NCBI RefSeq assembly: GCF_016785095.1
Contig: NZ_JAEKJB010000002.1
Span: forward strand, 372,001-436,000
Direction of reading: 5' to 3'
Length of the DNA stretch: 64,000 bases
Origin: Alloalcanivorax marinus
GTDB taxonomy: Bacteria; Pseudomonadota; Gammaproteobacteria; Pseudomonadales; Alcanivoracaceae
Part shown: positions 37,561-53,217 of the stretch, one piece after another
How positions within the stretch are numbered: the stretch's first letter is position 1
How the letters are laid out: each line of letters begins with the position of its first letter
The notes under the pieces: generated by a model
What the model was told of the DNA's origin: nothing
Seen by the model: only the letters and a program-made list of their open reading frames with translations
Database searches by the model: none
Translations under genes and position numbers: made by a program

Positions 37561-37710
37561 GTGAAGGGAACCCATCGCTACCAGAGCCTGGGCGAAGCCA
37601 TGGAGGACGCCATGGCCTGGCGGGACCAGGCCGAGGTATTGATCCTGGCCGACCAGGACGGCGAGTACCGCCTGCACCGGCCGTCGTCGCTCAGCCCCCG
37701 GCCCGGGTAA
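37561..37710 (+). CDS. Candidate small protein (49 aa), start uncertain
   Basis: The frame from GTG 37561 to TAA 37710 encodes KGTHRYQSLGEAMEDAMAW... and ...LILADQDGEYRLHRP, with a protein-like helix/strand pattern. A stop codon lies just upstream (37555-37557), so GTG 37561 is the first possible start. The only good ribosome binding site (GGAG at 37541) instead faces ATG 37551 in a different frame. Either an unusual start is used, or a small indel has separated the start from the body. Its 3' end overlaps the antitoxin-like gene tail-to-tail by 20 bases. No family recognised. Confidence 0.4.
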   Translation: MKGTHRYQSLGEAMEDAMAWRDQAEVLILADQDGEYRLHRPSSLSPRPG

Positions 37711-37993
37711 GATCCTGGAAACGCACGCCGGTGGCGCGCATCACCGCCGCCATGGTCCGCAATGTCGGATTACCCTTTGGAGAAAGCGCGCGATAGAGGC
37801 TTTCCCGGGACAGCCGTGCCCGCTCCGCCACCGTGGCCATGCCGCCGCGTGCCTCCACCACATGACGCAGCGCCAGCAGGAACGCCGGCTCGCCGCCGGG
37901 TTCATCCAGTTCATCCAGTGCCGTACGCAGGTAATCCGTCGCCATGGCGGGATTTTCCCGCAACATGGCCACCACCGCCTCTCCTTTCGACAT
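37691..37993 (-). CDS. Orphan addiction-module antidote-like protein (HTH)
   Basis: 100 residues, resembling the short antidote family that follows RelE/ParE-type killer genes: N-terminal LRTALDELDEPGGEPAFLLALRHVVEARGGMATVAERARLSRESLYRALSPKGNPTLRTMAAVMRATG, i.e. a helix-turn-helix of the Xre/HigA kind. Such genes normally sit directly downstream of a toxin gene of about 100 codons. Here the 90 bases upstream contain only a 16-codon ORF and then a Zur operator, so no toxin is present. No strong ribosome binding site precedes ATG 37993. Confidence 0.75.
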   Translation of the reverse strand: MSKGEAVVAMLRENPAMATDYLRTALDELDEPGGEPAFLLALRHVVEARGGMATVAERARLSRESLYRALSPKGNPTLRTMAAVMRATGVRFQDLTRAGG

Positions 37994-38102: not shown

Positions 38103-38123
38103 ATATGTTATAATATAACATAT
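38103..38123. promoter_or_regulatory. Zur operator (zinc uptake regulator box)
   Basis: A perfect 21-base palindrome with 10-base arms and core ATGTTATAATATAACAT, identical to the core of the gammaproteobacterial Zur consensus. It is a striking AT-rich island in GC-rich DNA. On the plus strand it contains TATAAT (38109-38114), usable as a -10 for the carbonic anhydrase gene. On the minus strand TTGTCA-N17-TGTTAT overlaps it. Zinc-bound Zur would therefore block both divergent promoters. Confidence 0.9.
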
Positions 38124-38191
38124 CTATCACGACCCTTTGACAACCCGAGGGCCGTGCCCTGGCTGGCCCCTTCATCGCAAGGATTATTGTC

Positions 38192-38752
38192 ATGATTCGC
38201 CCCAACCCCAACGGTGACCGCCCACGGGTGCATCCCGGCGCCTTCGTTGATCCCACCGCCATTCTGTGCGGGTCGGTGATCGTTCAGGAGAACGTTTTCA
38301 TCGGTCCCTACGCGGTGATCCGCGCCGACGAACTGAACGACACCGGCGGCATGGAGCCGATCGTGATCGGCGCCCATTCGAACATCCAGGACGGAGTGGT
38401 GATTCACTCCAAATCCGGTGCCGCCGTCACCATCGGCGAGCGCACTTCCATCGCCCACCGGGCCATCGTCCACGGTCCTTGCCGGGTCGGAGACGGCGTC
38501 TTCATCGGCTTTAACAGTGTGCTGTTCAACTGCGTCATCGGCGAACGGGCGGTGGTGCGTCACAACGCAGTGGTCGATGGCGTTGAACTGCCGGCGGGCT
38601 TTTACGTGCCCTCCACCGAGCGCATCGGCGCGGCCACCGATCTGGAGGCTCTGGCACGGGTGTCGGTGCAGGACTCCGCCTTTTCCGAGGACGTGGCGCG
38701 CACCAACAACAGCCTGGTGGAAGGCTATAAACGCATTCAAAACGAGTTCTGA
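38192..38752 (+). CDS. Gamma-class carbonic anhydrase-like protein (left-handed beta helix)
   Basis: 186 residues of hexapeptide repeats (GAFVDPTAILCGSVIVQENVFIGPYAVIRAD...) with a candidate metal triad H72, H89 and H94 (VIHSKSG; SIAHRAIVHGP), matching the H-x4-H spacing of gamma-carbonic anhydrases. Interconverts CO2 and bicarbonate if active. AAGGA site before ATG 38192. Gamma enzymes can use iron or cobalt, and a paralogue of this type is Zur-controlled in Pseudomonas, matching the Zur box 69 bases upstream. First gene of a three-gene unit with dihydroorotase and DksA paralogues. Confidence 0.88.
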   Translation: MIRPNPNGDRPRVHPGAFVDPTAILCGSVIVQENVFIGPYAVIRADELNDTGGMEPIVIGAHSNIQDGVVIHSKSGAAVTIGERTSIAHRAIVHGPCRVGDGVFIGFNSVLFNCVIGERAVVRHNAVVDGVELPAGFYVPSTERIGAATDLEALARVSVQDSAFSEDVARTNNSLVEGYKRIQNEF

Positions 38753-38758
38753 GATTCC

Positions 38759-40138
38759 ATGACCATGCAACGGAGCAAACCGAATGATCCCTGGGCTCTG
38801 GCCGGGCGCCAGCGGGCCGATCTGTTGATCACCGCGGGCACCGTGCACACCCCCAACGGCGAGGAACGGCTGGACATTGCCTGCGCCGGCGGACGCATCG
38901 TGGCCCTCGGCGACCTCGGTGGGTGGCACGCCGATACGCGCCTGGACGCCAACGGGCTGCAGGTGCTCCCCGGGGTCATGGACACCCAGGTGCACTTCCG
39001 GGAACCGGGCCTGACCCACAAGGAGACCCTGGAAGCGGGCACCCGGGGCGCGGTGCTCGGCGGTGTCACCGCCGTCTTCGAAATGCCCAACACCGATCCG
39101 CTGACCCTGTGGCGTGACGATCTGCGGGCCAAGCTGGAGCGGGCGGAAGGCCGCGCATGGTGTGATTATGCGTTCTACCTGGGCGGCGCGGCGGTTAACG
39201 CCGATGAGCTCGCCGGGCTGGAGCAACTGCCCGGCTGCGCCGGCGTGAAGGTGTTCATGGGCAGCTCCTTTGGCGACCTGCTGGTGGACGATGACACCGC
39301 CCTGCGCCGTATCCTGGCCGGCGGTCACCGTCGCATGGCGGTGCACGCCGAGGATGAAGCACGGCTACGCGCGCGCCGGCCTCTGGTGGAGGGGAGCGGT
39401 GACGTCACCCGGCACCCCCATTGGCGGGACGTGGACAGTGCCCTGATCGCCACCCGCCGGATCGTCGCCCTGGCCGAAGACACTGGCCGGCGCCTGCACA
39501 TCCTGCATGTCTCCACCGCCGAGGAAATCGCCTGGCTGGCCCGCCATAAGGAACGGGTCACCGTGGAAGTGACGCCCCATCACCTGACCCTGAGCGCGCC
39601 GGACTGCTACCGGCGGCTGGGCAGCCTGGCGCAGATGAATCCGCCGGTGCGCGAGCGTCGTCACCGGGACGCGCTTTGGCGGGCAATCCGTGACGGCGTG
39701 GTGGATGTGATCGGCAGTGACCATGCGCCGCACACCCTGGAAGAAAAGGCCCGTCCCTATCCCGATTCTCCCAGCGGCATGACCGGCGTGCAGACACTGC
39801 TGCCGATCATGCTCGACCATGTGAACCAGGGGCGCCTCACCCTGCGGCGCCTGGTTGATCTGACCAGCGCCGGCCCGGCCCGGGTGTTCGGCATCCAGGG
39901 CAAAGGGCGCATCGCGGTGGGCTACGACGCCGATTTCTCCATCGTCGACACCGCCGCCCGCCGCACCCTCGACAATAGCTGGATCGCCAGCGTCGCGGGT
40001 TGGACGCCCTACCATGGTGAAACGGTCACCGGCTGGCCGATTCATACCGTGGTGCGCGGCAACATCGTGGTCCGTGACGAAGCCCTGGCCCCGGCGGCGC
40101 CCGGCGGGCAACCGGTGACCTTTCTGGAAACGCCTTGA
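38759..40138 (+). CDS. pyrC: Dihydroorotase paralogue (zinc-starvation type)
   Basis: 459 residues, amidohydrolase fold: DTQVHFREPG (75-84), K164 as bridging carboxy-lysine candidate (AGVKVFMGSS), HAEDE (196-200), HILHVST (247-253), and SDHAPH (320-325). Catalyses the carbamoyl-aspartate to dihydroorotate step of pyrimidine synthesis. The first metal histidine of the usual HxH is Q77, so metal use may differ from the housekeeping enzyme. It starts six bases after the carbonic anhydrase gene and is followed by the DksA paralogue, the same grouping as the Zur-regulated back-up genes of Pseudomonas. Confidence 0.87.
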   Translation: MTMQRSKPNDPWALAGRQRADLLITAGTVHTPNGEERLDIACAGGRIVALGDLGGWHADTRLDANGLQVLPGVMDTQVHFREPGLTHKETLEAGTRGAVLGGVTAVFEMPNTDPLTLWRDDLRAKLERAEGRAWCDYAFYLGGAAVNADELAGLEQLPGCAGVKVFMGSSFGDLLVDDDTALRRILAGGHRRMAVHAEDEARLRARRPLVEGSGDVTRHPHWRDVDSALIATRRIVALAEDTGRRLHILHVSTAEEIAWLARHKERVTVEVTPHHLTLSAPDCYRRLGSLAQMNPPVRERRHRDALWRAIRDGVVDVIGSDHAPHTLEEKARPYPDSPSGMTGVQTLLPIMLDHVNQGRLTLRRLVDLTSAGPARVFGIQGKGRIAVGYDADFSIVDTAARRTLDNSWIASVAGWTPYHGETVTGWPIHTVVRGNIVVRDEALAPAAPGGQPVTFLETP

Positions 40139-40145
40139 GACGCCT

Positions 40146-40559
40146 ATGAGACCCCTCACCGAATCGCAGCTCCGGCGCATGGCGAAACGCTCCTACATGA
40201 ACGAACGCCAGCGGGAATTCTTCCATCGCCTGTTGCTCACCCTCCGGCAGGACACCCGGCGCACCATGGATGAGTTGCAAGCCAGCCTGCGCGCCACCGT
40301 GCGCGAACCCGACGAAGCCGATCAGGCCGCCCAGGAAGAGGAGCAGCGTCTGGTGCTGCGCGCCCTCGATCGGGACAGCCAGCTGCTCGACAAGATCGAT
40401 GCCGCCCTGCGCCGTCTGGCCACCGGTGAATACGGCTACTGCCGGGAAACCGGCGAGCCCATCGGTATCGAGCGGCTGCTCGCCCGGCCCACGGCGGAAT
40501 ATGCCATCGACGCCAAAACCCGCCGCGAAAGCGTGGAAAGGCACTATCGGGATGGCTGA
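40146..40559 (+). CDS. dksA2: DksA-family RNA polymerase-binding regulator with degenerate zinc finger (DksA2-like)
   Basis: 137 residues. Coiled-coil domain with the tip acidic residues D56 and D59 (EPDEADQAAQEEE), which act in the RNA polymerase secondary channel with ppGpp. In the globular domain only C99 of the four zinc cysteines remains; the other positions are T102, A120 and A123 (GYCRETGEP...EYAIDAKTR). Such zinc-independent paralogues replace DksA during zinc limitation. Position as third gene behind the Zur box supports this. Seven bases after the dihydroorotase. Confidence 0.9.
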   Translation: MRPLTESQLRRMAKRSYMNERQREFFHRLLLTLRQDTRRTMDELQASLRATVREPDEADQAAQEEEQRLVLRALDRDSQLLDKIDAALRRLATGEYGYCRETGEPIGIERLLARPTAEYAIDAKTRRESVERHYRDG

Positions 40560-40657
40560 CTTTCAGCCTGGATAATGAGCGTACGCGCGGACGACGCCGC
40601 CGCAGCGGGCGGAGGGTTTTTAGCGGGTGGAGGCGGAAGGGGAGGCGGAAGGGAAGA

Positions 40658-40733
<76 letters not shown>

Positions 40734-40804
40734 ACGACCGGCCCTGCTGGGCTGGCGGGCGCTAGTTTAGCAGGAAGCCATGTGGACACAAGCCCGCCGG
40801 GCGT

Positions 40805-41383
40805 TCAGGGCTCGCCAAGCAGGAAGCGGCAGAGCTGCTCGGAAGTGGCTTCGTCGAAGCCCTTGTCCTGGGACAGCCGCCAGTAACTGATGTAGCCGTC
40901 CAGCGCCATGACGAAGAAGTGGTAGAGGCCGTCGGTGTCCACCGCGGCGCGACGTTCCGGGGGCAGGGTGGAGAGAATCATGTCGCGCAGCCGGGCGGTC
41001 ATCCAGTTGATCAGCGTGGGCTGGTAATGGTCCTCCGGCGTGGCGGTGGAGAGCGCCTGCATGATGTTGTTGGCGAAGCCGTTCTGCCGTTCGGGGATTT
41101 CCTTGAACACCACCCGGAACAGGTGCCGGAGTCGTTCTCTTGGTTCCTCGATATTGAGCAGTTCCTGCTCCAACTCGAGAAACTGGCGGCGCAGCCAGGG
41201 CTCGAACACGGTGTACAGGATTTCGAATTTGGATTCGAAATAGACGTACACATTGGGCGGCGAGGTACCGGCCGCCTTGGCGATCTGCGGCAGCGAGGTG
41301 TTGGCGTAGCCTCGGGTGGAGAAAAGGTCGAAGGCGGATCTCAGGATCGCGTCCCGTACCTGGCTTTTTTTGACCTGGGCCAT
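40805..41383 (-). CDS. TetR-family transcriptional regulator
   Basis: 192 residues: N-terminal HTH (about 8-55: AILRSAFDLFSTRGYANTSLPQIAKAAGTSPPNVYVYFESK) and a helical ligand domain (LFRVVFKEIPERQNGFANNIMQAL...). Located 78 bases downstream of the RidA gene in a leftward unit that is divergent from the ABC/oxygenase operon. It is the only specific regulator near that operon and may repress it, or its own unit. Confidence 0.9.
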   Translation of the reverse strand: MAQVKKSQVRDAILRSAFDLFSTRGYANTSLPQIAKAAGTSPPNVYVYFESKFEILYTVFEPWLRRQFLELEQELLNIEEPRERLRHLFRVVFKEIPERQNGFANNIMQALSTATPEDHYQPTLINWMTARLRDMILSTLPPERRAAVDTDGLYHFFVMALDGYISYWRLSQDKGFDEATSEQLCRFLLGEP

Positions 41384-41461
41384 GGTGTTGGTGTCGTCCC
41401 TGGCGTGGTGGTTTAGGGGAGGGCGAAACGGCGGCCATTATATAGGTCGCCGGACAGCGGG

Positions 41462-41860
41462 TCAGGCCGGCTTGAACGCCAGTGCTTCCACCTCAATGCG
41501 CCAGCCCGGGTGGGCCAGGGCATGGACCACCAGCAGGGTGGAGGCGGGGCGGGCATCGCCCAGGTAGCCCATCCGCACTTCATTCATGGCGGCCAGGTCC
41601 TGGTCCGGGACCACGTAGGTGGTGGTCTTCACCAGGTTGGCGGCGCTCATGCCCGCCGCTTCCAGTACCCGGGTCACGTTGGCCCAGGTAAGCGCCACCT
41701 GTTGCTGGAAATCATCCGGATGCCTGCCATCGGCGTCCACGCCCACTTGTCCCGCGATGTGCAGCCACTGGCCTGGTTCCCGGCTCAGGGCGCCCTGACT
41801 GTAGGGGCCGCTCGGGGTGGCCATGCCAGTGGGGTTGAAGGTATGCAGAGCGTTGGTCAT
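41462..41860 (-). CDS. RidA/YjgF-family protein
   Basis: 132 residues with the Rid fold: FNPTGMATPSGPYSQGALSREPGQWLHIAGQVGVDADGRHPDDFQQQVALTWANVTRVLEAAGMSAANLVKTTTYVV. It lacks the Arg of canonical RidA in the usual C-terminal motif, so may be a Rid2-7 type. Family members hydrolyse enamines/imines, and 2-aminomuconate deaminases are relatives. ATG 41860 has a GGAG site; an in-frame upstream extension was rejected. It is divergent from the ABC/oxygenase operon, which suggests a nitrogen-containing substrate. Confidence 0.85.
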   Translation of the reverse strand: MTNALHTFNPTGMATPSGPYSQGALSREPGQWLHIAGQVGVDADGRHPDDFQQQVALTWANVTRVLEAAGMSAANLVKTTTYVVPDQDLAAMNEVRMGYLGDARPASTLLVVHALAHPGWRIEVEALAFKPA

Positions 41861-42081
41861 GGGGGGCTCCTGTATCGGGTCGGTCTGGTATCGGGCGCCG
41901 GTCGGCGCTCGTCGGGAGTATGGCATGTCGTCGTCTCAATACCAAATGGTGTTCGGTAATGGGGCGGTGCAGCGCTACTTTTGCATGCTGAATGTGCACT
42001 CATGCCCCCATTGGAGGCAGGGTCTTGTTGCATGGGGCGTTCTGTCTTGAGCGCTGGCGTGATCCGACCAGGAAAAACAAA

Positions 42082-42095
42082 TTGATGTAAATCAA
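42082..42095. promoter_or_regulatory. TTGAT-N4-ATCAA dyad (enhancer site for a sigma-54 activator, or Anr/FNR box)
   Basis: TTGATGTAAATCAA is a perfect 5-4-5 inverted repeat. It satisfies the FNR/Anr consensus and also resembles upstream activating sequences of XylR/DmpR-type activators. It lies about 92 bases upstream of the start site expected for the sigma-54 promoter, a position suited to an enhancer element. The 352-base gap 41861-42212 otherwise holds only this, the IHF-like site and the promoter. Confidence 0.6.
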
Positions 42096-42102
42096 GGCTT
42101 TG
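42090..42102 (+). promoter_or_regulatory. IHF-binding-site candidate
   Basis: AATCAAGGCTTTG matches WATCAA-N4-TTR exactly and is followed by an AT-rich tract. It lies between the gap's upstream part and the sigma-54 promoter, where DNA bending by IHF would bring an enhancer-bound activator to the polymerase. It overlaps the right half of the dyad at 42082, so both may not be used together. Confidence 0.5.
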
Positions 42103-42153
42103 TAATTATTTTGTTGACAGAGGGAGAGTGGGCGAAGCCGGACGGGCGGCCAC

Positions 42154-42168
42154 TGGCACAATGATTGC
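42154..42168 (+). promoter_or_regulatory. Sigma-54 (-24/-12) promoter of the ABC/oxygenase operon
   Basis: TGGCAC-N5-TTGC, with GG and GC separated by exactly ten bases, matches the RpoN consensus without a mismatch. The predicted start site is near 42180, leaving a leader of about 33 bases before GTG 42213. No enhancer-binding activator gene is in the window. Confidence 0.78.
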
Positions 42169-42212
42169 TTTTAACGAATTGCATTCGGTTTTGAGAATCA
42201 AGGAGCCATGTC

Positions 42213-43385
42213 GTGAAGCTATATCGCTTGATCCAGGTAGTACTTCTGCTTTCCCTGCTGGGGGCGGGGAGCGCTTCGGCGCAACAGGGTGTCACCGAGG
42301 ACACCATTCTGATTGGTGCCCTGGGGCCGCTGACCGGTGGCACCGCCTTTATCGGGGCGCCGGGCCGTGACGGCATGCAACTGGCGGTGGATGCCCTGAA
42401 TGAACAGGGTGGCATCAATGGCCGCAAGCTGGAACTGCGCTTCGAGGCGGCGCTGACGCCGGCGGAAAGCGTGGCGGCGGCGAAGAAGCTGGTGGAGCAG
42501 GACAAGGTGTTCGTGCTGGTGCTGGCGTCCGGTTCCACCGGCGCGGCGGCGGCGGCGGATTATGTGCGCTCGGTGGGTGTGCCCACCTACAACATTTTCG
42601 GTGCCACGCCGGTGATTCGCGAGCCGTTCGCCGACAACGTCTTCCACGGTGCTATCACGGACCCGCGAACCAGCGCGGCGGCGTTGATTGAGCGTTTGAC
42701 CCGTGACGGCGATCCGGAGCGCATCGGCTTGCTGGCCGGTTCCTATGCCTTTCCCCAGGCCAATCTGTCGGTGATTCGCCCGATGCTGGAGGAACGCGGC
42801 TTTGACGTCACCGTGGAGACCTTCGATCAGAACGCCAAGGATTTCACCGCGCAGTTGGTGTCGTTCCTGCGCGCGGACGTGGACGCGGTGCTGGTGCTGG
42901 GCAGCTTCGCGGAGGCCGGGTTCGCCATCAAACAGGCCGGCCAGGTGGGGCTGGGCGGTGTTCACTGGGTCGTGGACGGCTCCGCGGTGAACAACGCCAT
43001 CGTGCCGATCATCGGCAACGCGGACGGCATTCTCGGTTACTACAACGCACCTTTCTATCCGGGCCAGGACGCCGAGCCCATGGAGCGCTATCTGGCGCTG
43101 TGGCGCGCCGCGTACGGCGAACCGCCCCAGGGGCGACCGAACATCTATGACCTCACCGGCTATGGCTCGGTGTATGTGCTCGCCCATGCCATCGACAAGG
43201 CCGACGACGATCTCACCTGGGAAAACCTGATCGCAAGCTGGGAGCGGGTGGAGGGGGCGTTGCCTTCGGACTTCGGCGGTTACGACGTGGTGTTTCCGGA
43301 GAGCTTCTCGGCCACCGATCACCAGGGCAACGACCATCTGGGCACGGCGGTCATCCAGGATGGCGTCTGGACCGTGCTGCCCTGA
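42213..43385 (+). CDS. Branched-chain-amino-acid-type ABC transporter substrate-binding protein
   Basis: 390 residues, signal peptide (about 1-23, GAGSASA-QQG) then a LivJ/LivK-type periplasmic fold: DTILIGALGPLTGGTAFIGAPGRDGMQLAVDALNEQGGINGRKLELRFEAALTPAESVAAAKKLVEQDKVFVLV. GTG 42213 is used, seven bases after AGGAG; an ATG at 42208 in another frame opens only ATG TCG TGA, overlapping the GTG. In catabolic operons such binding proteins capture aromatic acids or amides rather than amino acids. First gene of an operon running to 53.2 kb. Confidence 0.92.
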   Translation: MKLYRLIQVVLLLSLLGAGSASAQQGVTEDTILIGALGPLTGGTAFIGAPGRDGMQLAVDALNEQGGINGRKLELRFEAALTPAESVAAAKKLVEQDKVFVLVLASGSTGAAAAADYVRSVGVPTYNIFGATPVIREPFADNVFHGAITDPRTSAAALIERLTRDGDPERIGLLAGSYAFPQANLSVIRPMLEERGFDVTVETFDQNAKDFTAQLVSFLRADVDAVLVLGSFAEAGFAIKQAGQVGLGGVHWVVDGSAVNNAIVPIIGNADGILGYYNAPFYPGQDAEPMERYLALWRAAYGEPPQGRPNIYDLTGYGSVYVLAHAIDKADDDLTWENLIASWERVEGALPSDFGGYDVVFPESFSATDHQGNDHLGTAVIQDGVWTVLP

Positions 43386-43409
43386 TTCGCGCGTCAAACG
43401 GAGACAGCC

Positions 43410-44285
43410 ATGACGGAGCTCGCATTGGTGTTGCTGGGCGGCCTCAACTTCGGCGCCATCTATGCCCTGGCCGCCCTCGGCATCGTACTGATCCATAAAG
43501 CCACCAAGACGGTGAATTTCGCCCACGGCGCCTTCGTGCTGATCGGGGCGTTAGGCGCCTACATCGTGCAGGTGCAGCTCAGTTGGTCGGCCTGGCTGGC
43601 GTACCTGCTGGTGCCGCCGGCGGTAGGCGCGTTGGCGGCGTTGATCGAGCTGGTGCTGCTGCGGCCGCTGCGCCGCGCGGACGCCTTCTCGGTGGTCATC
43701 GCCACCGTATTCCTGGGCATCGCGCTCTCCGAGGGGGTGCGGTTGATCTACAACGCGGAGCTGCTGACCGTGCCGTCGCCGTTCCAGGGCGCGCCTTTTC
43801 TGATCGGCCCGGTGATCCTGACCCGGGAGGTGCTGTGGACGGTGGCCGGCTCGCTGTTGATCGGCATCGGCACCACCCTGGCGTTCCGCCGTGCCCGCGT
43901 GGCCCGGGGCATGCGCGCCATGGCCGCCAACCATCGCGGCGCCCAGCTATGCGGTTACTCCGTGGATCGCACCTATGCGCTGGCCTGGTTCCTGGGCGGA
44001 GCCCTGGCCGGCGTGGCCGGGGTGTTCGCGGCGCCGGCCAAGGGCATTTCGCCGGATCTTCCCATCGCGGTGATCGCGGCCGCCTTCGTGGCGGCGGTGG
44101 TCGGTGGCTTCGACAGCCTCAAGGGGGCGGTGGCCGGCGGCTTGTTGCTGGGTGTCGTCGAGACCCTGGCGGCCGCCTATGGCGACAGCGCGTTGAAGAA
44201 CGCGATCAGTTTCATGCTGCTGTTCGTGGTCATGCTTTACCGGCCCGAGGGCTTGTTCCCGGAGGTGAAAACCCGACATGTTTAG
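43410..44285 (+). CDS. Branched-chain-type ABC transporter permease (LivH-like)
   Basis: 291 residues, about eight membrane helices, with LivH landmarks LLGGLNFGAIYALAALGIVLIHKATKTVNFAHGAFVLIGALGAYIVQ and the cytoplasmic loop RMRAMAANHRGAQLCGYSVDRTYALAWFLGGALAGVAGVFAAPAKG in its typical permease form. Forms the membrane channel with the following fused permease. Overlaps the next gene by 8 bases. Confidence 0.92.
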   Translation: MTELALVLLGGLNFGAIYALAALGIVLIHKATKTVNFAHGAFVLIGALGAYIVQVQLSWSAWLAYLLVPPAVGALAALIELVLLRPLRRADAFSVVIATVFLGIALSEGVRLIYNAELLTVPSPFQGAPFLIGPVILTREVLWTVAGSLLIGIGTTLAFRRARVARGMRAMAANHRGAQLCGYSVDRTYALAWFLGGALAGVAGVFAAPAKGISPDLPIAVIAAAFVAAVVGGFDSLKGAVAGGLLLGVVETLAAAYGDSALKNAISFMLLFVVMLYRPEGLFPEVKTRHV

Positions 44286-46143
44286 CTTTAAACGTAAATC
44301 CACCCAGCGTGGCAGCCTGGCGCTGCCCTTGACGCGCGAGCGCCGCGTCGATGCCAGGGGATTTTCCCGGTGGGCCTGGTTGGCGCCGTCCATGGTGGTG
44401 CTGGCGGTTCTGCTGGTGACGGCGCGATTGGGAAGCTACCCCCAATACGTGGCGTCGCTGGTGATCAGCGCCATGCTTACCGGCACCGGCCTGACCCTGC
44501 TGGTGGGCTACGCCCGCTGCATCTCCCTGGCCACTGGCGCGGTGCTGGCCCTGGGTGCCTACGGTTCGGTGCTGCTGATCACCGCCGCCGGTGTGCCGTT
44601 GCTTCCGGCGATGCTCGGCGGCGCCTTGCTGGCCGGCCTGGGCGGTTTCGTTCTTGGTGTGCCGGCGGTTCGGTTTCGCGGCCACAACCTGGCGATGATT
44701 ACCCTGGTGTTCCAGTCCGTGGTGATCATTCTGATCCGTGAGTCCACCGGACTCACCGGTGGCGCCGGCGGGTTGACGGTGCCGGCGCCCTCCATCGCTG
44801 GCATTTCGCTGTCCGGTGATCTGGCCTATCTGGTGTTCACCGCCGTGGTGGTGGCGTTGGTGCTGGTGTTGCCCATGGCGCTGTTGCTCGGCCGTTTCGG
44901 CCGCAACCTGCGCGCTGTGTCCGGCAACGAAGTGGCGGCCCAGGCGTTTGGCATTTCCGTGCCTCATCATCTGGTGGCCGCTTTTGTGTGCAGCTCCTTG
45001 ATCATCGGCTTATCCGGTGCTCTTCAGGCGCCGGTGTTCCGGGTTATCGACCCGGACACCTTCGGCATCAATACCTCCATTTCCACTCTTGCCTATCCGA
45101 TTGTCGGTGGCATGGGCAGTGCCTGGGGCGGTCTGGCCGGGGGCGCGGTCATGCGGGCGCTGCCAGAGGTGCTTCGCGGGCTGGCCGATTATCTGGAGCT
45201 GTTCTTCGCTTCCCTGGTTCTGGTCACCGTGCTGTTCTTCCCCGGTGGAATCGCCGGCCAACTGTTCAGGCTTCGCCATCGGCATGGCGGTCAAGTGACG
45301 CGCGAATCGGTGCCGTCGGCGGCGTCCCCGGTGGCGCGGCCGGCGGCTGGCAAGGCGCTGCCCGACACCGCCGGTATCGCCTTGTCCATCGACGGCGTGG
45401 GCAAGCAGTACGGCGCGCTCAAGGCGGTGGATGACGTCAGCTTCCAGGTCCGCGAAGGAGAGATTCGCGGCTTGATGGGCCCCAATGGCGCCGGCAAGAC
45501 CACCCTGTTCAATATCGTCTCGGGCTTCGTGGAGGGGGACCGCGGCGCCATTCGCCTGCACGGCGAGACCCTGCCTTCGGGCAGCCCGGTGACGCGCATG
45601 AGTCACGGACTCACGCGCACCTTTCAGCATGTGGCGGTGTTCGGCGAAATCAGCGTTTACGACAACGTCGCCATCGGCCTGGGTGGTAACGGTATCGCGC
45701 CGGTGCTGCTCGGCAGTTTGCTTGATCCTTTCCCGGGCGGCGACGCCCGGCGCGAGCGGGCACGCATCATGGCCGCGCTCGACAGTGTCGGGCTGGCTCA
45801 CCTGGCCCGCGCCAAGGCCCGTCAGCTTTCCCTGGGCGATCAGCGCCGTTTGGAAATCGCCCGCGCCATCGTGTCGCGGCCGCGCCTGCTGCTGCTCGAT
45901 GAGCCGGTGTCCGGCGTCAGCGAGGAAGAGACCGGGCAACTGGGGCTGCTGTTGCGCCGCATCAATCGGGAGCAGGGCATCACCATGCTTCTGGTGGAAC
46001 ACAACATCGGCTTCCTGGCCGGCATGAGCGATCACATCACGGTGATGGCCGCCGGCCGGGTGGTGTGCGAGGGCGAGCCCGCCTCGGTGATCGACGATCC
46101 GGCGGTTCAGGAAGTGTATTTCGGGAAGGCAGGCGATGCTTGA
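44278..46143 (+). CDS. Fused ABC permease-ATPase (LivM-LivG type)
   Basis: 621 residues. Residues 1-330 are a LivM permease (VASLVISAMLTGTGLTLLVGYARCISLATGAVLALGAYGSVLL; EVAAQAFGISVPHHLVAAFVCSSLIIGLSGALQAP). About 365-621 is a LivG ATPase with Walker A GPNGAGKTT (401-409), signature LSLGDQRRLEIARAI, Walker B LLLLDEPVSG and switch His in LLVEHNIGF. A linker rich in Ala/Pro/Ser (about 335-362) joins them. The fusion is seen in some aromatic-acid ABC importers. Overlaps neighbours by 8 bases on each side. Confidence 0.92.
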   Translation: MFSFKRKSTQRGSLALPLTRERRVDARGFSRWAWLAPSMVVLAVLLVTARLGSYPQYVASLVISAMLTGTGLTLLVGYARCISLATGAVLALGAYGSVLLITAAGVPLLPAMLGGALLAGLGGFVLGVPAVRFRGHNLAMITLVFQSVVIILIRESTGLTGGAGGLTVPAPSIAGISLSGDLAYLVFTAVVVALVLVLPMALLLGRFGRNLRAVSGNEVAAQAFGISVPHHLVAAFVCSSLIIGLSGALQAPVFRVIDPDTFGINTSISTLAYPIVGGMGSAWGGLAGGAVMRALPEVLRGLADYLELFFASLVLVTVLFFPGGIAGQLFRLRHRHGGQVTRESVPSAASPVARPAAGKALPDTAGIALSIDGVGKQYGALKAVDDVSFQVREGEIRGLMGPNGAGKTTLFNIVSGFVEGDRGAIRLHGETLPSGSPVTRMSHGLTRTFQHVAVFGEISVYDNVAIGLGGNGIAPVLLGSLLDPFPGGDARRERARIMAALDSVGLAHLARAKARQLSLGDQRRLEIARAIVSRPRLLLLDEPVSGVSEEETGQLGLLLRRINREQGITMLLVEHNIGFLAGMSDHITVMAAGRVVCEGEPASVIDDPAVQEVYFGKAGDA

Positions 46144-46831
46144 AGTCAATGATCTGACGGTGAAGTACGGCGCCCTCACCGCCGTGCACGGATTATCCCT
46201 GACGGTGGGAGAAGGCGAGGCGGTGGCGTTGCTGGGCGCCAATGGCGCGGGCAAGACCACGGCGGTGGAAGCGATCGCCGGCCTGCATGATCAGCGTGAT
46301 GGCGAAGTGCGTTTCCAGGGCCGGGAAATCAGCCGCTGGCGTGCCTCGCGCATCGCCCGTGCCGGCATGGCCCTGGTGCCGCAATGGCGGGAGCTGTTCG
46401 GCAACTTCACGGTAATGGAAACCCTGGAGATCGGTGGCCATGCCCGCAATGGGCGGGCAGCGCCGGACTATCGGGAAATTTTTGAACTGTTCCCGCGCCT
46501 GGAAGAACGGCGCGACCAGATTGCTTCGTCGTTGTCCGGCGGCGAGCAGCAGATGCTCACCATCGCCCGCGCCCTGATGAGCGCCCCCACCATGATGATC
46601 CTGGATGAACCCTCCGCCGGCCTGGCGGTGGGCGTGGTTCAGGACGTGGTGCGGGCCATTCAGGCGGTGCGGGCCCGTGGCGTGGCGATTCTTCTGGTCG
46701 AACAGAACTTTGAAATCGCCGGAAGCCTGGCGTCGAGAGCGCTGGTGCTCTCCACCGGCCGGGTGGTCTGGCAAGGCGATATGGAGGACGTCCGGGATTC
46801 CGAGGAAGCCCGTCAGGCGTTTTTCCTTTAA
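46136..46831 (+). CDS. ABC transporter ATP-binding protein (LivF-like)
   Basis: 231 residues: Walker A GANGAGKTT (about 35-43), signature LSGGEQQMLTIARALM, Walker B MMILDEPSAGLA and ILLVEQNFEIAGSLASR. Second nucleotide-binding subunit of the importer, paired with the ATPase half of the fused subunit. Overlaps the upstream gene by 8 bases, completing a four-gene importer with five functional modules. Confidence 0.94.
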   Translation: MLEVNDLTVKYGALTAVHGLSLTVGEGEAVALLGANGAGKTTAVEAIAGLHDQRDGEVRFQGREISRWRASRIARAGMALVPQWRELFGNFTVMETLEIGGHARNGRAAPDYREIFELFPRLEERRDQIASSLSGGEQQMLTIARALMSAPTMMILDEPSAGLAVGVVQDVVRAIQAVRARGVAILLVEQNFEIAGSLASRALVLSTGRVVWQGDMEDVRDSEEARQAFFL

Positions 46832-46848
46832 ACGGAGAGGTTGGCAAC

Positions 46849-48207
46849 ATGAGCAAAACATTGATTCGCTGCGGGCGGCTTTTCTCCGGCCACGGCAACC
46901 AGGCGCTTGAGAACCAGACCCTGGTGATCAGCGGTGACAGTATTGAATGGATGGGGCCCACCGGCGAGGCGCCAGCGGCGGGGCAGGGGGATCGGGTCCT
47001 GGACCATGGCGGGCATTTCGTGATGCCGGGGCTGGTGGATTGCCACACGCACATTTCCTACGGCAATGCGCAGGCCCAGGAAGACATCGATCTGCATGCC
47101 CCCATGGAGTTCCGCACCCTGCGCGCGCTGCACGCCGCCCAGGCGGTGTTGCGCGCCGGTGTCACCTCGATCTTCGACCCGGCCTGTTCCGGCTATATCT
47201 CGCCCTCGGTGCGCGAGGCGGTGGCCACCGGCATGTTCGAGGGACCGCGCATTACCTGTGCCGGGCGCTCCCTGACGTCCCAACAGGGGCTGTACGACTG
47301 GTACCCCAGCTGGATCGGCTTTCCCTCCAGCTCCACCGGAGAGCGTGCCTACACGGTGGCGGAGGCGGTGCAGGTGATTCGCGACCAGGCCAAGAACGGC
47401 GTGGATGCGATCAAGCTCACCATGGACGGCATCTCCCGCCGCGAGGGCGACGGCCTGATCGCCGCCTACACCCAGGACGAGACCCTCGCCATGGTGGAGG
47501 AGATCCACCGCCTCGGCCTCAAGGCGGTGGTGCATGCCCGTGGCCGGGAAGGGGCGCTGTACGCCGCCCGCGCCGGTGTCGACATCATTCACCATGCCTC
47601 CTGCATCGACGATGACGGCATTCAGGCGGCCTTGGATAACGGTTGTTACCTTTGTCCTTCCCTGACGTTGCTGGTCAACAACATCGAGTTCAACAGCCCC
47701 ACGGACCCGTCCGCCGCCTGGTGGCCGGACATCCAGAAGCAGGAGCTGATGGATGCCTCGACCAACCTGAAGAAAGCGCGCGCCGCCGGCGTGAAGTTCA
47801 TCTCCGGCTCGGAGACCGGCTTCGCCGTCACGCCCTACGGCGAGTGGAATGCCAAGGAGCTTGAGGCCCATGTGCGCTATCTGGGTTTCACCCCGGCGGA
47901 AGCCTTGCGCTGCGCCACCGTGGACAGCGCCAGGGTGCTGCGTGACGCCGATCGGCTGGGCGGCTTGGCACCGGGCAAGTGGGCGGACCTGCTCATCATC
48001 GAAGGCGATCCGCTGGCCGATATCACGGTGCTCCAGGACGCCGACCGTCTGCGCGCGGTATTCAAGGGCGGCCGTAAGGTGGACCTGACCCCGGCGGTGC
48101 CTCGTGAGCGCCGCGCGTTCGAATTTTCCATGGGCATGTGGAGCCGGCAGTACACCCGCGAAGCGGTGGCCGCGACCGGCGTCGAGCCCTTTCTTATTCC
48201 TTCCTGA
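46849..48207 (+). CDS. Metal-dependent amidohydrolase family protein
   Basis: 452 residues of the imidazolonepropionase-like amidohydrolase group: HxH at H66/H68 (DCHTHIS), bridging K189 candidate (AIKLTMDG), H229 (VVHARG) and H248/H249 (IIHHAS). The last metal ligand, normally Asp in a GTD motif, appears as E322 (SGSETGF). It hydrolyses an amide, lactam or related bond. Sits between the importer and the oxygenase genes in one operon, so likely trims the imported substrate. AGAGG site 17 bases after LivF. Exact substrate unknown. Confidence 0.87.
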   Translation: MSKTLIRCGRLFSGHGNQALENQTLVISGDSIEWMGPTGEAPAAGQGDRVLDHGGHFVMPGLVDCHTHISYGNAQAQEDIDLHAPMEFRTLRALHAAQAVLRAGVTSIFDPACSGYISPSVREAVATGMFEGPRITCAGRSLTSQQGLYDWYPSWIGFPSSSTGERAYTVAEAVQVIRDQAKNGVDAIKLTMDGISRREGDGLIAAYTQDETLAMVEEIHRLGLKAVVHARGREGALYAARAGVDIIHHASCIDDDGIQAALDNGCYLCPSLTLLVNNIEFNSPTDPSAAWWPDIQKQELMDASTNLKKARAAGVKFISGSETGFAVTPYGEWNAKELEAHVRYLGFTPAEALRCATVDSARVLRDADRLGGLAPGKWADLLIIEGDPLADITVLQDADRLRAVFKGGRKVDLTPAVPRERRAFEFSMGMWSRQYTREAVAATGVEPFLIPS

Positions 48208-48223
48208 AGTACAGGAGTCCGCA

Positions 48224-49033
48224 ATGATTCAGTATCCCCTCAAGGTTCAGGGGGTGGGCACCCGCGTGCTGGATGCCGGCGACGGCGAGCGCGTGGTGGT
48301 GTTCATCCATGGTCTTTCCACCCGCGCCGATCGCTGGCGTGAAACGCTGCAACGGTTCGCCGGGCGCGGTTACCGCGCCATCGCGCTGGACCTGCCGGGC
48401 CATGGGCTGGCCGACAAGCCCGCCGACTTCGATTACACCTCGCCGGGCCTGGCCGATTACTGCCTGGCGGCGCTCGCCGAGCTGGGCGTGGAGCGCTTCG
48501 ACCTGGTCGGTACTTCCCTGGGCGGGCACGTGGCCGCGCTGATGACGCTGCGCGCGCCGCGACGGGTACGCTCGCTGCATCTGGTCGGCGCGCTCGGCAT
48601 CGCGCCGATCAGCGATGCCGTGGGCGAGGCGATCCGCGCCAGCGTGCGCACGGTCAGCCCGGAAGGCATCCGCGCCAAGCTGCAGGGTGTGTTTCATGAT
48701 CAGGCATTCGTCACCGAGCAACTGGTCCGCGAGGAGACCCTCGTCAACGGTGCCGATGACACCCTGGCGGCGCTGTGCCGGCTGGCCGACTACGTGGCCA
48801 CCCGCCTCAACCAGGACCTGGTGGCCGAGCCGCTGCTCAAACTGCAAGACCCGCCGCCGCTTCATTTGCTGTGGACCGACCTGGACCGGGTGGTGCCGTT
48901 GGAGGTGGGCGAGCGTGCCTCGCAACTGCTTGATCAGCCGCTGCATGTGATGCGCGGCGTGGGCCACGCTCCCTATGTGGAGCGCCCGGAGGAATTCGTC
49001 ACGACCATCATTGGTTTCATGGACGCGGCCTGA
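48224..49033 (+). CDS. Alpha/beta hydrolase (catabolic type, first copy)
   Basis: 269 residues: oxyanion HG (VVVFIHGLSTRAD), DLPGHGLADKP, nucleophile elbow GTSLGG, acid region DLDRVVP and the His in GVGHAPYVERPEEF. Similar in size to meta-cleavage product hydrolases and to aryl esterases. ATG 48224 has an AGGAG site; it follows the amidohydrolase by 16 bases and precedes the oxygenase alpha gene by 10. Ester, amide or C-C bond cleavage cannot be distinguished. Confidence 0.9.
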   Translation: MIQYPLKVQGVGTRVLDAGDGERVVVFIHGLSTRADRWRETLQRFAGRGYRAIALDLPGHGLADKPADFDYTSPGLADYCLAALAELGVERFDLVGTSLGGHVAALMTLRAPRRVRSLHLVGALGIAPISDAVGEAIRASVRTVSPEGIRAKLQGVFHDQAFVTEQLVREETLVNGADDTLAALCRLADYVATRLNQDLVAEPLLKLQDPPPLHLLWTDLDRVVPLEVGERASQLLDQPLHVMRGVGHAPYVERPEEFVTTIIGFMDAA

Positions 49034-49043
49034 GGAGCGAAAC

Positions 49044-50357
49044 ATGCAAGACAGCGACTATATTTTCCGTGAGCACGATCTCGACCGCTTTCGCTGGCCG
49101 GACGCGGACTACGCGCACACCCCGTATCGGGTGTTCAAGGACAGCGCCATTTATGAGCGCGAAATGGAAAAGGTCTTCCGCGGGCCAACCTGGGGTTACC
49201 TGGCCCTGGAGGCGGAATTGCCGGAAGCCGGCAGCTTCAAAAGCGTGATGCTGGGTAACACGCCGGTGGTGGTAAGCCGTGAGGAAGACGGCTCCTTCTC
49301 CGCGTTCGTCAACCGTTGCGCCCATCGCGGCGCCACCGTGGTGCGCGAGGAGTTCGGCAAGGCCGATACCCATGCCTGCATCTATCACCAGTGGTGCTAC
49401 AGCAGCGCCGGTGACCTGGTGGGCGTGCCGTACCGGCGTGGCGTGTCCGGCAAGGGCGGCTATCCGAAGGATTTCAAACCGGCTCAACACGGTCTGCGCA
49501 AGCTGCACGTGGAAAGCTACAAGGGCCTGATCTTCGGTTCGCTGCAAAACGAGCCCGGGACCTTGATGGCCTATCTCGGGCCGCACATCAAGGAGCACCT
49601 GGATCGTATTCTGGTCAAGCCGCTCAAGGTGCTGGGCTACCACCGGCAACGTATCTCCGCCAACTGGAAGCTCTATTTCGAGAACATCAAGGACCCATAC
49701 CACGCCGGCCTGTTGCATATGTTCGCGGCGACCTTCGGTACCTATCGCTCCACCCAGGAAGGGTACACCCTGGTCAGTGATGGTGGTGGCCACTCCATCG
49801 TCTATTCGGTGATGGGCACCGATGATCACGATAGCGTGTCCGAGCACTACAAGGATGTGAAGGACAAGTACCAAACCGATTTCCAGCTCAACGACGGTAC
49901 CCTGCTGCAATGGACGCCGGATTTCGACGACGGCATCGGCAACCTGATCATTTCCGTGTTTCCCAATCTGGTGGTGCAGCAGATTCTCAATACGCTGGCG
50001 ACCCGCCAGGTCCGCCCGCTGGGGCCGGACGGCATGGAACTGGTATGGACCTTCTTCGGCTTCGAGGACGACGACGACACACTCACCGATGACCGTTTGC
50101 GCCAGCTCAATCTGGTCGGTCCGGCCGGCTACATCTCCATGGAGGACGGCGAGGCGATCCGTCTGGTGCAGCAGGCGATCCAGGGTGAAACCGATGCCAC
50201 CTCCTTCATTCAAATGGGCGGCCTGGGCCCGATTGTCGACGCCGATCATGTGGTGACCGAGGTCTGCACCCGGGGGTTCTGGAAGCAGTACGCGCAAACC
50301 ATGGAGTTCGCGCCCCGCGAAGAGGGCGCCCCGGTACCGGAGAAAGCCCATGACTAG
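49044..50357 (+). CDS. Aromatic ring-hydroxylating dioxygenase, large (alpha) subunit
   Basis: 437 residues. Rieske cluster ligands C92-x-H94 (RCAHRG) and C112-x2-H115 (CIYHQW); mononuclear iron site D217, H220 and H225 (NIKDPYHAGLLH) with the conserved electron-transfer Asp in the same stretch. Incorporates O2 into an aromatic substrate. Located with its beta subunit, ferredoxin and reductase, making a three-component oxygenase. Start ATG 49044 follows TGAGGAGCGA; longer in-frame extension overlaps the hydrolase. Closest described role by eye is benzoate/anthranilate-type, without certainty. Confidence 0.94.
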   Translation: MQDSDYIFREHDLDRFRWPDADYAHTPYRVFKDSAIYEREMEKVFRGPTWGYLALEAELPEAGSFKSVMLGNTPVVVSREEDGSFSAFVNRCAHRGATVVREEFGKADTHACIYHQWCYSSAGDLVGVPYRRGVSGKGGYPKDFKPAQHGLRKLHVESYKGLIFGSLQNEPGTLMAYLGPHIKEHLDRILVKPLKVLGYHRQRISANWKLYFENIKDPYHAGLLHMFAATFGTYRSTQEGYTLVSDGGGHSIVYSVMGTDDHDSVSEHYKDVKDKYQTDFQLNDGTLLQWTPDFDDGIGNLIISVFPNLVVQQILNTLATRQVRPLGPDGMELVWTFFGFEDDDDTLTDDRLRQLNLVGPAGYISMEDGEAIRLVQQAIQGETDATSFIQMGGLGPIVDADHVVTEVCTRGFWKQYAQTMEFAPREEGAPVPEKAHD

Positions 50358-50832
50358 TCCTATCGACGGCGATCTCTATCAGCGCGTTCAGGATCTGTAT
50401 CAGAACTACGGCCACGCCATCGACGTGGATGATCTGGAGGCCTGGCCGGAGTTCTTCACAGCGGACGCCCGCTACTGCGTGATTCCCCGCGAAAACCATG
50501 ACCGGGGTTTGCCGGCGGCGCTGATCGACTGCCGTGGCCGGCCCATGTTGCTGGATCGGGTGGTGGCCTTGCGCACCGCCAATATCTACAACATCCACTT
50601 CGATCGTCACCTGGTGTCGCCGGCGGTGATCACCGGACGCGACGGCGATGTTCTCGAAAGCCGCGTCAATTTCACCGTCATGCAGACCGATCAGAGCGGT
50701 GTCACCCGGCTGTTCGCCGCCGGGGTCTCCTATGATCGTATTCGGGTGGAGGAGCAGCGGCTGCGTTTCCTGGACCGGCGCCTGGTTCTGGATACCTACG
50801 GGGTACCGGAACTGCTGGCGACCCCGTTGTAA
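50350..50832 (+). CDS. Aromatic ring-hydroxylating dioxygenase, small (beta) subunit
   Basis: 160 residues of the NTF2/SnoaL-like beta-subunit fold: LYQRVQDLYQNYGHAIDVDDLEAWPEFFTADARYCVIPRENHDRG, MLLDRVVALRTANIYNIHFDRHLVSPAVI and VNFTVMQTDQSGVTRLFAAGVSYDRI. It stabilises the alpha3beta3 oxygenase. Overlaps the alpha gene by 8 bases. Confidence 0.93.
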   Translation: MTSPIDGDLYQRVQDLYQNYGHAIDVDDLEAWPEFFTADARYCVIPRENHDRGLPAALIDCRGRPMLLDRVVALRTANIYNIHFDRHLVSPAVITGRDGDVLESRVNFTVMQTDQSGVTRLFAAGVSYDRIRVEEQRLRFLDRRLVLDTYGVPELLATPL

Positions 50833-50842
50833 GGAGGTTCAC

Positions 50843-51154
50843 ATGTCCAAGCAATGGCATTCGGTGATGAAAGCCGGCGAACTGGAAGACGGCGAGGTGG
50901 CGGCGGCCCGGATTGGCGACATGCCGCTGGCGGTGTTTCGCCTCGGCGAGCAGGTATTCGCGTTGCATGACCTGTGTTCCCACGGCAACGCCCGGTTGTC
51001 GGAAGGGTTCGTGGAGGACGGGTGCATCGAGTGTCCCCTGCACCAGGGGCTGTTCGACATTCGCAACGGTTGCCCGATGTCGCCGCCGGTGAAGGAGCCG
51101 GTGGCGTCGTTTCCCGCCCGTATCGAGGGCGATGACATCCAGGTGTGCCTGTGA
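50843..51154 (+). CDS. Rieske-type ferredoxin component
   Basis: 103 residues with Rieske ligands C45-x-H47 (CSHGNA) and C64-x2-H67 (CPLHQG). Carries electrons from the reductase to the oxygenase. AAGGAGG site before ATG 50843. Shares its stop with the reductase start (GTGA). Confidence 0.94.
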   Translation: MSKQWHSVMKAGELEDGEVAAARIGDMPLAVFRLGEQVFALHDLCSHGNARLSEGFVEDGCIECPLHQGLFDIRNGCPMSPPVKEPVASFPARIEGDDIQVCL

Positions 51155-52392
51155 GCGCGGATCGCGGGCCGATGGTGATCGTCGGCGCCGGCCAAGCCGG
51201 CTTGTCGGTGGCGCGGGCGCTGCGGGCCGGTGGCTACCAGGGCACGGTGATCATGATCGGCGCGGAGCCGGAGCGACCCTATGAACGGCCGGCGCTGTCC
51301 AAGGCGGCTCTGGCGGGTCCGGCGGCGGAGAGCGACGACCCGGCGCCGGCGCTGGCCGAACCGGCGGAATGGCGGGCGCTGAATCTGGATGCCCGGCTGG
51401 GCCAGCGGGTGCGGGCCATCGACCGGAACCGGCGCCTGCTGCACTGTGACGACCAGACCACGGTGGCGTACGGAACCCTGTTCCTGGCCACCGGCGGTGA
51501 GGCACGCCGCCTGCCCGGCGTGGCCGGTGACCGGGTGCATTATCTGCGCACACTGGGGGACGCGCGCGAGTTGCGGCGTGGTCTGGCGAACGCCCGGCGC
51601 CTGCTGGTGGCCGGTGGCGGCTGGATCGGGCTGGAAGTGGCGGCGGCGGCCCGGCATCAGGGGCTCGAGGTGACGGTGCTGGAAGCGGGTGCGCGCCTGT
51701 GCGAACGGTCGCTGCCGGAGGACGCCGCCGATTATCTGCTTCAACACCATCAGGAGCGGGGCGTGAGGTTCCGGTTCGGCGCCGTGGCCTCGCCCCGTGC
51801 CAGTGCCAACGGCGTGTGCTGCGAAGTGGACGGTACCCGCTTGCGGGCGGACCTTATGCTGGTGGGCATCGGCCTGGTGCCCAACGATCGGCTGGCGGTG
51901 GAGGCGGGGCTGGAGGTGGACGATGGCATCGTGGTGGACGGGCAGGCGCGAACCAGCGATCCATGCATCTTCGCGGTGGGGGACGTGGCCCGTTTTCCGT
52001 CTTCGTTCGCGGGCCGCCGGTTGCGTTTGGAGTCCTGGACCCACGCGCGACTGCAGGCGGAAGCCGCCGCCGCCGCCGCGCTGGGGGGCAGCGCCGGATA
52101 CCGCGATCAACCCTGGTTCTGGTCGGATCAGCATGACCTTAACGTGCAGGTGCTGGGGCTGCCGCGCGGGCGGGGTATATGCCGCGATTACGGCACGGGC
52201 CGCCGCGGCCTGTTTTACTTCCACGAGGGCGCGCTGACCGGTGCGGTAGCGTTCAACGCGGGGCGCGATATCGGGTTCGCCAGGCGCTGGCTGAACGCCG
52301 GCCGCTCGCCCCGGGCCGAGGATCTGGCGGACACTGGTCTGGCTTTGTCCGCATTGCATCGCCATCTTCGCGAGGTCGCCGATGAAGCATGA
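51151..52392 (+). CDS. FAD-dependent ferredoxin reductase component
   Basis: 413 residues: FAD-binding GxGxxG near the N terminus (MVIVGAGQAGLSVARAL), NAD-binding GxGxxG (LLVAGGGWIGLEVA), and FAD motif DPCIFAVGDVARF, with the C-terminal domain of class-III ring-hydroxylase reductases. GTG 51151 overlaps the ferredoxin TGA; GTG 51145 is an alternative. Passes electrons from NADH to the Rieske ferredoxin. Confidence 0.93.
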   Translation: MSADRGPMVIVGAGQAGLSVARALRAGGYQGTVIMIGAEPERPYERPALSKAALAGPAAESDDPAPALAEPAEWRALNLDARLGQRVRAIDRNRRLLHCDDQTTVAYGTLFLATGGEARRLPGVAGDRVHYLRTLGDARELRRGLANARRLLVAGGGWIGLEVAAAARHQGLEVTVLEAGARLCERSLPEDAADYLLQHHQERGVRFRFGAVASPRASANGVCCEVDGTRLRADLMLVGIGLVPNDRLAVEAGLEVDDGIVVDGQARTSDPCIFAVGDVARFPSSFAGRRLRLESWTHARLQAEAAAAAALGGSAGYRDQPWFWSDQHDLNVQVLGLPRGRGICRDYGTGRRGLFYFHEGALTGAVAFNAGRDIGFARRWLNAGRSPRAEDLADTGLALSALHRHLREVADEA

Positions 52393-53206: not shown

Positions 53207-53217
53207 ATGCCGACGGT

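What the first reader, a model, noticed from the sequence alone, without database searches (positions are those of the whole stretch)
38103..40559. Zur-controlled zinc-sparing module: gamma-carbonic anhydrase, dihydroorotase and DksA paralogues behind a near-perfect Zur box
The 21-base palindrome at 38103-38123 matches the gammaproteobacterial Zur core exactly. The three genes downstream are back-up versions of zinc proteins: the DksA copy keeps only C99 of four zinc cysteines, and the dihydroorotase has Q77 in place of the first metal histidine. A similar Zur-regulated set is known in Pseudomonas aeruginosa. Here the three are contiguous (gaps of 6 and 7 bases) under one operator.
Basis: partly seen in the sequence, partly recalled or inferred. 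Interest (0 to 1): 0.72.

Follow-up and report, generated by a model that had tools for sequence, protein, structure and literature searches.

The report
Zinc-shortage back-up enzyme operon
This is a set of three spare-part genes behind a zinc-sensor switch that a relative of Alloalcanivorax most likely turns on when zinc runs short; the kind is well known, while this compact arrangement and its decay in sister species are small new details.

Summary
A Zur-type operator (38105-38121; 1 of 20 bases off the published E. coli Zur motif) lies 70 bases before gamma-carbonic anhydrase, dihydroorotase (PyrQ) and DksA2 genes, with gaps of 6 and 7 bases. In the 4.18-Mb genome similar sites precede a zigA-zur pair and a MepM/Shy-type endopeptidase. 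Zinc-type counterparts of all three are encoded elsewhere. Zur control of these three paralogue families is published for Pseudomonas: a new member of a known kind.

Correction: 'zinc-free' is supported by sequence only for DksA2 (C-T-A-A in place of C4). PyrQ keeps five of six metal ligands; its Gln is fixed in 89 of 89 PyrQ rows (85 distinct loci) and occurs in a Porphyromonas enzyme. The carbonic anhydrase keeps all three His.

New details: pyrQ-dksA2 in tandem was seen in 1 of 80 named loci, the trio in none. Sister species carry relics: the last codons of the carbonic anhydrase in one, a dksA2 scrap without operator in another. The operon thus seems older than these species and is being lost around this genome.

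The parts
38105..38121 (.). Zur-type operator core ATGTTATAATATAACAT (extended palindrome 38103-38123)
   Evidence: the same 17-mer stands before COG0523 genes in G024, G025 and G027
38109..38114 (+). TATAAT inside the operator, possible -10 element (inferred; the promoter scan found none)
   Evidence: sequence; scan 0 promoters
38192..38752 (+). gamma-class carbonic anhydrase, metal ligands H72, H89, H94 intact
38759..40138 (+). PyrQ/PyrC2-type dihydroorotase, ligand positions Q77 H79 K164 H196 H250 D321
40146..40559 (+). DksA2, zinc-finger positions C99 T102 A120 A123; D56, D59, A61 aligned with the coiled-coil tip of E. coli DksA
40597..40622 (+). possible intrinsic terminator (stem 40597-40612 and T-rich tail)
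   Evidence: weak: 2 found in the region against 1.5 expected in shuffles

Best explanation
A three-gene zinc-sparing operon repressed by Zn-Zur. With enough zinc, Zur sits on the palindrome at 38103-38123, which overlaps a possible -10 element, and blocks transcription. When zinc falls, Zur lets go and one mRNA makes a gamma-carbonic anhydrase, a PyrQ dihydroorotase with an altered first metal ligand, and a DksA2 without a zinc finger. They stand in for the beta-carbonic anhydrase, the class II PyrC and the four-Cys DksA encoded elsewhere. Bicarbonate and dihydroorotase both feed pyrimidine synthesis; DksA2 would keep ppGpp control of transcription going. Shown here: operator, gene order, counterparts, a zur-like gene, shared operators in the family, low dN/dS of pyrQ and dksA2. 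Inferred: Zur binding, one transcript, zinc response, stand-in role. The stated confidence covers Zur control and stand-in role; that PyrQ and the carbonic anhydrase use a metal other than zinc is a separate step that I put near 0.5.
For: Operator rare and well formed. Two of the other three genome sites precede a ZigA-type COG0523 GTPase (697.5 bits, cut-off 600) followed by a gene whose only NCBIfam match is Zur (121.4 bits, under the cut-off of 167), and an M23 endopeptidase. Of 29 other-genome family loci (one best site per genome, L117-L145), 18 stand with COG0523, zur, dksA2, gamma-CA, pyrQ or Znu-like genes (one of them, L135, only by a 32% ABC match), 7 hold the 17-mer that lies in lpxD in our genome, 4 were unassigned. 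In 80 named pyrQ loci, 24 sites with up to 2 mismatches against 0 in one Markov resample; 12 of the 24 lie before one of four gene types. Counterparts: DksA with C-C-C-C, PyrC TIGR00856 437.2 bits, pyrB-linked PyrC', beta-CA 269.6 bits (cut-off 251). dN/dS against A. profundimaris 0.051/0.358 (pyrQ) and 0.068/0.324 (dksA2). Precedent: PA5536, PA5540, PA5541 up 134.6-, 37.6- and 37.9-fold on zinc depletion (PMC4542158, passages); Zur-regulated Cam, PyrC, DksA paralogues (PMC2770081, passages); pyrimidine link proposed for PA5540 (PMC13261364, passages).
Against: No expression or binding data. No sigma-70 promoter scored. 12 of 24 operator-like sites in the named loci were not next to the four gene types tested. 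The zur-like gene and the gamma-CA stay under their NCBIfam cut-offs. PyrQ and gamma-CA retain metal ligands and may still use zinc. The set is rare and so dispensable: pyrQ in 7 of 46 family genomes at E 1e-120 and 2 of 13 of the genus, gamma-CA in 13 of 45 at E 1e-20 and 1 of 13 of the genus. The znu genes of this genome have no site within 3 mismatches.
Confidence: 0.88

Rival explanations
1. The genes are Zur-regulated (so this rival shares most of the best explanation), but gamma-CA and PyrQ are zinc enzymes; extra copies or higher metal affinity, not a change of metal, is what helps at low zinc.
For: All three His of gamma-CA and five of six PyrQ ligands are kept. The Q is also in P. gingivalis dihydroorotase 2gwn (organism by recall), so it need not reflect zinc sparing. 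Haas 2009 offers the copy-number idea for paralogues that keep their sites, and the 2025 paper on PaCA-gamma-1 says Zur control may reflect Zn dependence of that enzyme.
Against: Gamma-class Cam of M. thermophila was most active with Fe (as cited in PMC2770081); a Gln in place of the first metal His is expected to weaken one of two metal sites (inference). DksA2 has lost three of four Cys.
Confidence: 0.35
2. The palindrome serves the divergent antitoxin gene (37691-37993, -) or another Fur-family regulator, and the operon does not answer to zinc.
For: The region is divergent and two more Fur-family genes are in the genome.
Against: The identical 17-mer stands between COG0523 and SDR genes in three congeners; in A. 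profundimaris a toxin gene lies between antitoxin and box while the box stays next to pyrQ.
Confidence: 0.05
3. A decaying operon without function in this genome, as in its sister species.
For: Relics in G023 (gamma-CA tail) and G020 (dksA2 scrap) show that loss happens.
Against: All three frames, operator and spacing are intact here; pyrQ and dksA2 show low dN/dS (gamma-CA was not tested).
Confidence: 0.05

Closest known systems
Pseudomonas aeruginosa Zur cluster PA5532-PA5541 (dksA2 PA5536, folE2 PA5539, gamma-CA PA5540, pyrC2/pyrQ PA5541)
   Same: Same three paralogue families in a Zur-regulated cluster; gamma-CA and pyrQ are neighbours in a predicted operon (passages of PMC4542158 and PMC13261364).
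   Different: By locus numbers dksA2 stands apart from gamma-CA and pyrQ, and folE2 and amiA lie between; here all three are in one row behind one operator, and zigA-zur is on another contig. 4ijj (P. aeruginosa DksA2 by recall) keeps the third Cys.
Zur-regulated paralogues of zinc enzymes in gamma- and betaproteobacteria (Haas et al. 2009, PMC2770081)
   Same: Cam, PyrC and DksA paralogues predicted under Zur; Alcanivorax borkumensis is named in the legend of their alignment file (passages).
   Different: The arrangement of the window is not in the passages read; their figures and supplements were not seen.
Divergent dksA2-COG0523 / gamma-CA-pyrQ loci of family genomes G001 and G010
   Same: Same genes and operator type in the same family.
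   Different: dksA2 faces away from pyrQ and its protein is only about 45% identical to the window's.
Zur-regulated endopeptidase ShyB of Vibrio cholerae (PMC6381278; abstract and section list seen)
   Same: Another Zur-type site of the genome precedes an M23 endopeptidase of the MepM/Shy kind.
   Different: Scores stay under the cut-offs of MepM, ShyA and ShyC; not tested further.

Membership tests
Zur regulon member | Zur-type operator before the first gene | tested here: met
   38105-38121
Zur regulon member | a zur gene in the genome | tested here: inconclusive
   L010 4302-4757 (-): only NCBIfam match is Zur, 121.4 bits, under the cut-off of 167; Pfam FUR over its cut-off; it follows the COG0523 gene behind a Zur-type site, and relatives do so in L160, L165 and L167. 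I take it for zur.
Zur regulon member | zinc-dependent repression by Zur | not testable with these tools
   needs RNA-seq, reporter or gel shift
DksA2 (DksA paralogue without the C4 site) | DksA family protein with incomplete C4 site beside a four-Cys DksA in the genome | tested here: met
   C-T-A-A against C-C-C-C in L014; TIGR02420 just over its cut-off
PyrQ/PyrC2 dihydroorotase | equivalog PRK09060 above cut-off | tested here: met
   726.9 bits, cut-off 482
zinc-independent dihydroorotase (as claimed for the Zur type) | loss of the zinc ligands | tested here: not met
   only the first His is replaced (Q77); H79, K164, H196, H250, D321 kept, 89 of 89 PyrQ rows alike; ligand roles from the alignment to 3e74 and recall
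gamma-class carbonic anhydrase | hexapeptide repeats and three metal His | tested here: met
   Hexapep 70.7 bits; H72, H89, H94 in 56 of 56 rows (54 distinct); aligned to carbonic anhydrase 3otz and carbon-concentrating protein 3kwc
gamma-class carbonic anhydrase | a named NCBIfam gamma-CA model above its cut-off | tested here: not met
   best models (CcmM, carbonic anhydrase, PaaY) all below their cut-offs; these are narrower subgroups and not defining for the class, so I keep the class name
gamma-class carbonic anhydrase | CO2 hydration, and which metal | not testable with these tools
   needs purified enzyme

The most novel reading that the evidence does not exclude
The operon is a self-contained 'pyrimidine and ribosome' zinc-sparing cassette. 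PyrQ, with its fixed Q-H-K-H-H-D set, is a dihydroorotase that runs on one metal (or on Fe/Mn) because Gln in the first ligand position removes the second zinc. The cassette reached this lineage by transfer and is now being dismantled gene by gene in sister species that no longer meet zinc shortage.
Probability: 0.35. Interest if true: 0.45.

Novelty: new member of a known kind. Interest (0 to 1): 0.3.

Why it matters
It gives a compact natural construct with one operator and three zinc-sparing proteins, plus sister genomes with partial losses, so that the worth of each protein could be tested. It also sharpens a loose statement: PyrQ of this type, as aligned here, has not lost its metal site, only one ligand, and that change is shared with an enzyme of Porphyromonas.

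Tried and rejected
Genome hit C5:322375 (3 mismatches): rejected as a Zur site; it lies in an ORF that I read by eye as lpxD and spells V-T-I-Y-H, and the same 17-mer or a one-base variant recurs in many family genomes. Idea that gamma-CA was a recent insertion before pyrQ: rejected, because A. profundimaris keeps its last codons (E-R-L-Q-N-Q-F against K-R-I-Q-N-E-F-stop; 27 of 32 bases alike). Idea that the single-Cys DksA2 is special to this pair of species: rejected; C-T-S-A (2 rows) and C-S-S-V (2 congeners) also keep only the first Cys. Simple vertical descent of pyrQ in the family: doubtful; window and A. profundimaris PyrQ group with Methylophaga (SH-aLRT 95; the next fork has 23; quick tree of 86 rows with one very long paralogue row), and gamma-CA groups with Ralstonia and Oceanospirillaceae rows (97/83, 54 rows, window row on a long branch). 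Empty-site search in the genus: upstream flank in 8 of 13 genomes, long matches in 7; no relic found in the stretches held of G021, G026 and G019. Structure prediction and fold searches were not run.

Limits of the counts: named loci hold at most 6 kb of flank; 6 of 80 hold under 3.5 kb upstream of pyrQ and L078 only 80 bases downstream. Only complete ORFs of 60 or more residues were seen. The match list was cut by the tool. Searches drew 45 of 46 family genomes. Names of 'Znu-like' genes rest on BLAST to this genome's proteins.

The PyrQ tree left out those four repeats and L013; the gamma-CA tree left out L147 and L114.

Full report
What is there. The palindrome at 38103-38123 is real; its 17-base core ends 70 bases before the first of three genes on the + strand: gamma-class carbonic anhydrase 38192-38752, dihydroorotase 38759-40138 and DksA2 40146-40559, with gaps of 6 and 7 bases. 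The 13-base core, with up to 2 mismatches, occurs at one place in the window against 0.03 expected. A TATAAT lies inside the operator, so bound repressor would cover a possible -10 element; this is inference, since the promoter scan returned nothing. A weak terminator candidate follows dksA2 at 40597-40622 (2 found in the region, 1.5 expected).

Is it a Zur site? The E. coli Zur motif given in PMC6103462 (passages) fits 38106-38125 with 1 mismatch. With the window's own 17-mer as pattern, four places in the genome match within 3 mismatches and none in the reversed control: this one; one before a ZigA-type COG0523 GTPase followed by a zur-like gene that scores under the Zur cut-off; one before a MepM/Shy-type M23 endopeptidase; and one in an ORF read by eye as lpxD, taken as chance. 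The exact 17-mer stands before COG0523 genes in three congeners. Of 29 other-genome family loci, one best site per genome, 18 stand with recognised zinc-response genes (one only by a 32% ABC match), 7 hold the 17-mer of the lpxD place, 4 were unassigned. In 80 named pyrQ loci (988,494 bases) there are 24 sites with up to 2 mismatches; 12 lie just before gamma-CA, pyrQ, dksA2 or COG0523 genes, 12 do not; one Markov resample had none.

Counterparts. The same genome encodes a four-Cys DksA (L014), a PyrC of the dimeric type with HxH (L015 1025-2065, TIGR00856 437.2 bits), a pyrB-linked PyrC' with broken ligands (L013 1333-2613) and a beta-carbonic anhydrase (L103 1677-2315).

How zinc-free are the products? 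DksA2 positions are C-T-A-A in the window and in A. profundimaris. The other 13 DksA2 rows and 8 rows have C, then S or T, then C or S, then V, A or I. Forms with the first Cys alone also occur elsewhere (C-T-S-A in L073 and L084; C-S-S-V in congeners, L133 and L163); 4ijj keeps the third Cys. PyrQ keeps H79, K164, H196, H250 and D321 and has Q77; the set is the same in 89 of 89 PyrQ rows, 85 distinct loci. The Q is also in dihydroorotase 2gwn, which is from P. gingivalis by recall. [quoted passage not shown] The carbonic anhydrase keeps all three His in 56 of 56 rows (54 distinct), although no NCBIfam gamma-CA model reaches its cut-off.

Distribution and history. PyrQ is in 7 of 46 family genomes (E 1e-120) and in 2 of 13 of the genus; gamma-CA in 13 of 45 (E 1e-20) and 1 of 13. 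Gamma-CA stands directly before pyrQ in 20 of 80 named loci and elsewhere in the locus in 21; pyrQ-dksA2 in tandem only in A. profundimaris; the trio in none of the 80 nor in the six family loci, two of which repeat named ones. Congener G020 has, after the shared flank, an in-frame dksA2 scrap without start, without the zinc-finger segment and without an operator (best match within the tested 700 bases 8 mismatches, one strand read). So the operon seems older than these species and is being lost. PyrQ of this pair groups with Methylophaga rather than with family members (SH-aLRT 95), which points to transfer. pyrQ and dksA2 show low dN/dS; gamma-CA was not tested.

What is known. Haas 2009 (PMC2770081; passages) predicted Zur control of Cam, PyrC and DksA paralogues; Pederick 2015 (PMC4542158; passages) showed induction of PA5536, PA5540 and PA5541 under zinc depletion; the 2025 paper on PaCA-gamma-1 (PMC13261364; passages) places PA5540 in a predicted operon with folE2 and pyrQ, and I saw no metal analysis in those passages. 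A search for Alcanivorax with Zur and 'zinc uptake regulator' gave only Haas 2009; of the papers listed by the searches with DksA2, pyrQ, COG0523 and endopeptidase words, I opened only those named in this report. The arrangement of the window is not in the passages read; figures and supplements were not seen.

Verdict. Observation confirmed, interpretation supported with the metal caveat. New member of a known kind, modest interest.

Noticed in passing
37691-37993 (-) and L021 5406-5735 (-): An HI1420-type antitoxin gene in the window without its partner; A. profundimaris has the matching HI1419/RelE-ParE toxin gene directly upstream of it, in about 370 bases that are missing in the window.
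   Followed up: partly
L186/L170 (G020), near L186 7895-8081: In-frame dksA2 scrap, without operator, start or zinc-finger segment, at the same chromosomal place in a congener.
   Followed up: yes
40735-53217: About 12.5 kb next to tRNA-Thr (40658-40733) not found in the A. profundimaris stretch held, which has about 1.7 kb there.
   Followed up: no
L011 5076-6356 (-), G000:C6:247403: M23 endopeptidase of MepM/Shy type behind a Zur-type site; a 95% relative with a site lies in G023 (L161).
   Followed up: partly
L015 2062-3162 (+): An ORF that looks by eye like a second COG0523/CobW-type GTPase overlaps the end of the pyrC gene, a possible metal chaperone for PyrC (no family search run).
   Followed up: no
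L159 2636, L162 2132, L166 1907: Zur-type sites near an ABC transporter gene (30-32% to ZnuC) in G023, G020 and G021; no such site among the four of the window's genome.
   Followed up: no
L134, L143, L144: A site TTGTTATGATATAACAT in three congeners with none of the reference zinc genes within 1.5 kb.
   Followed up: no
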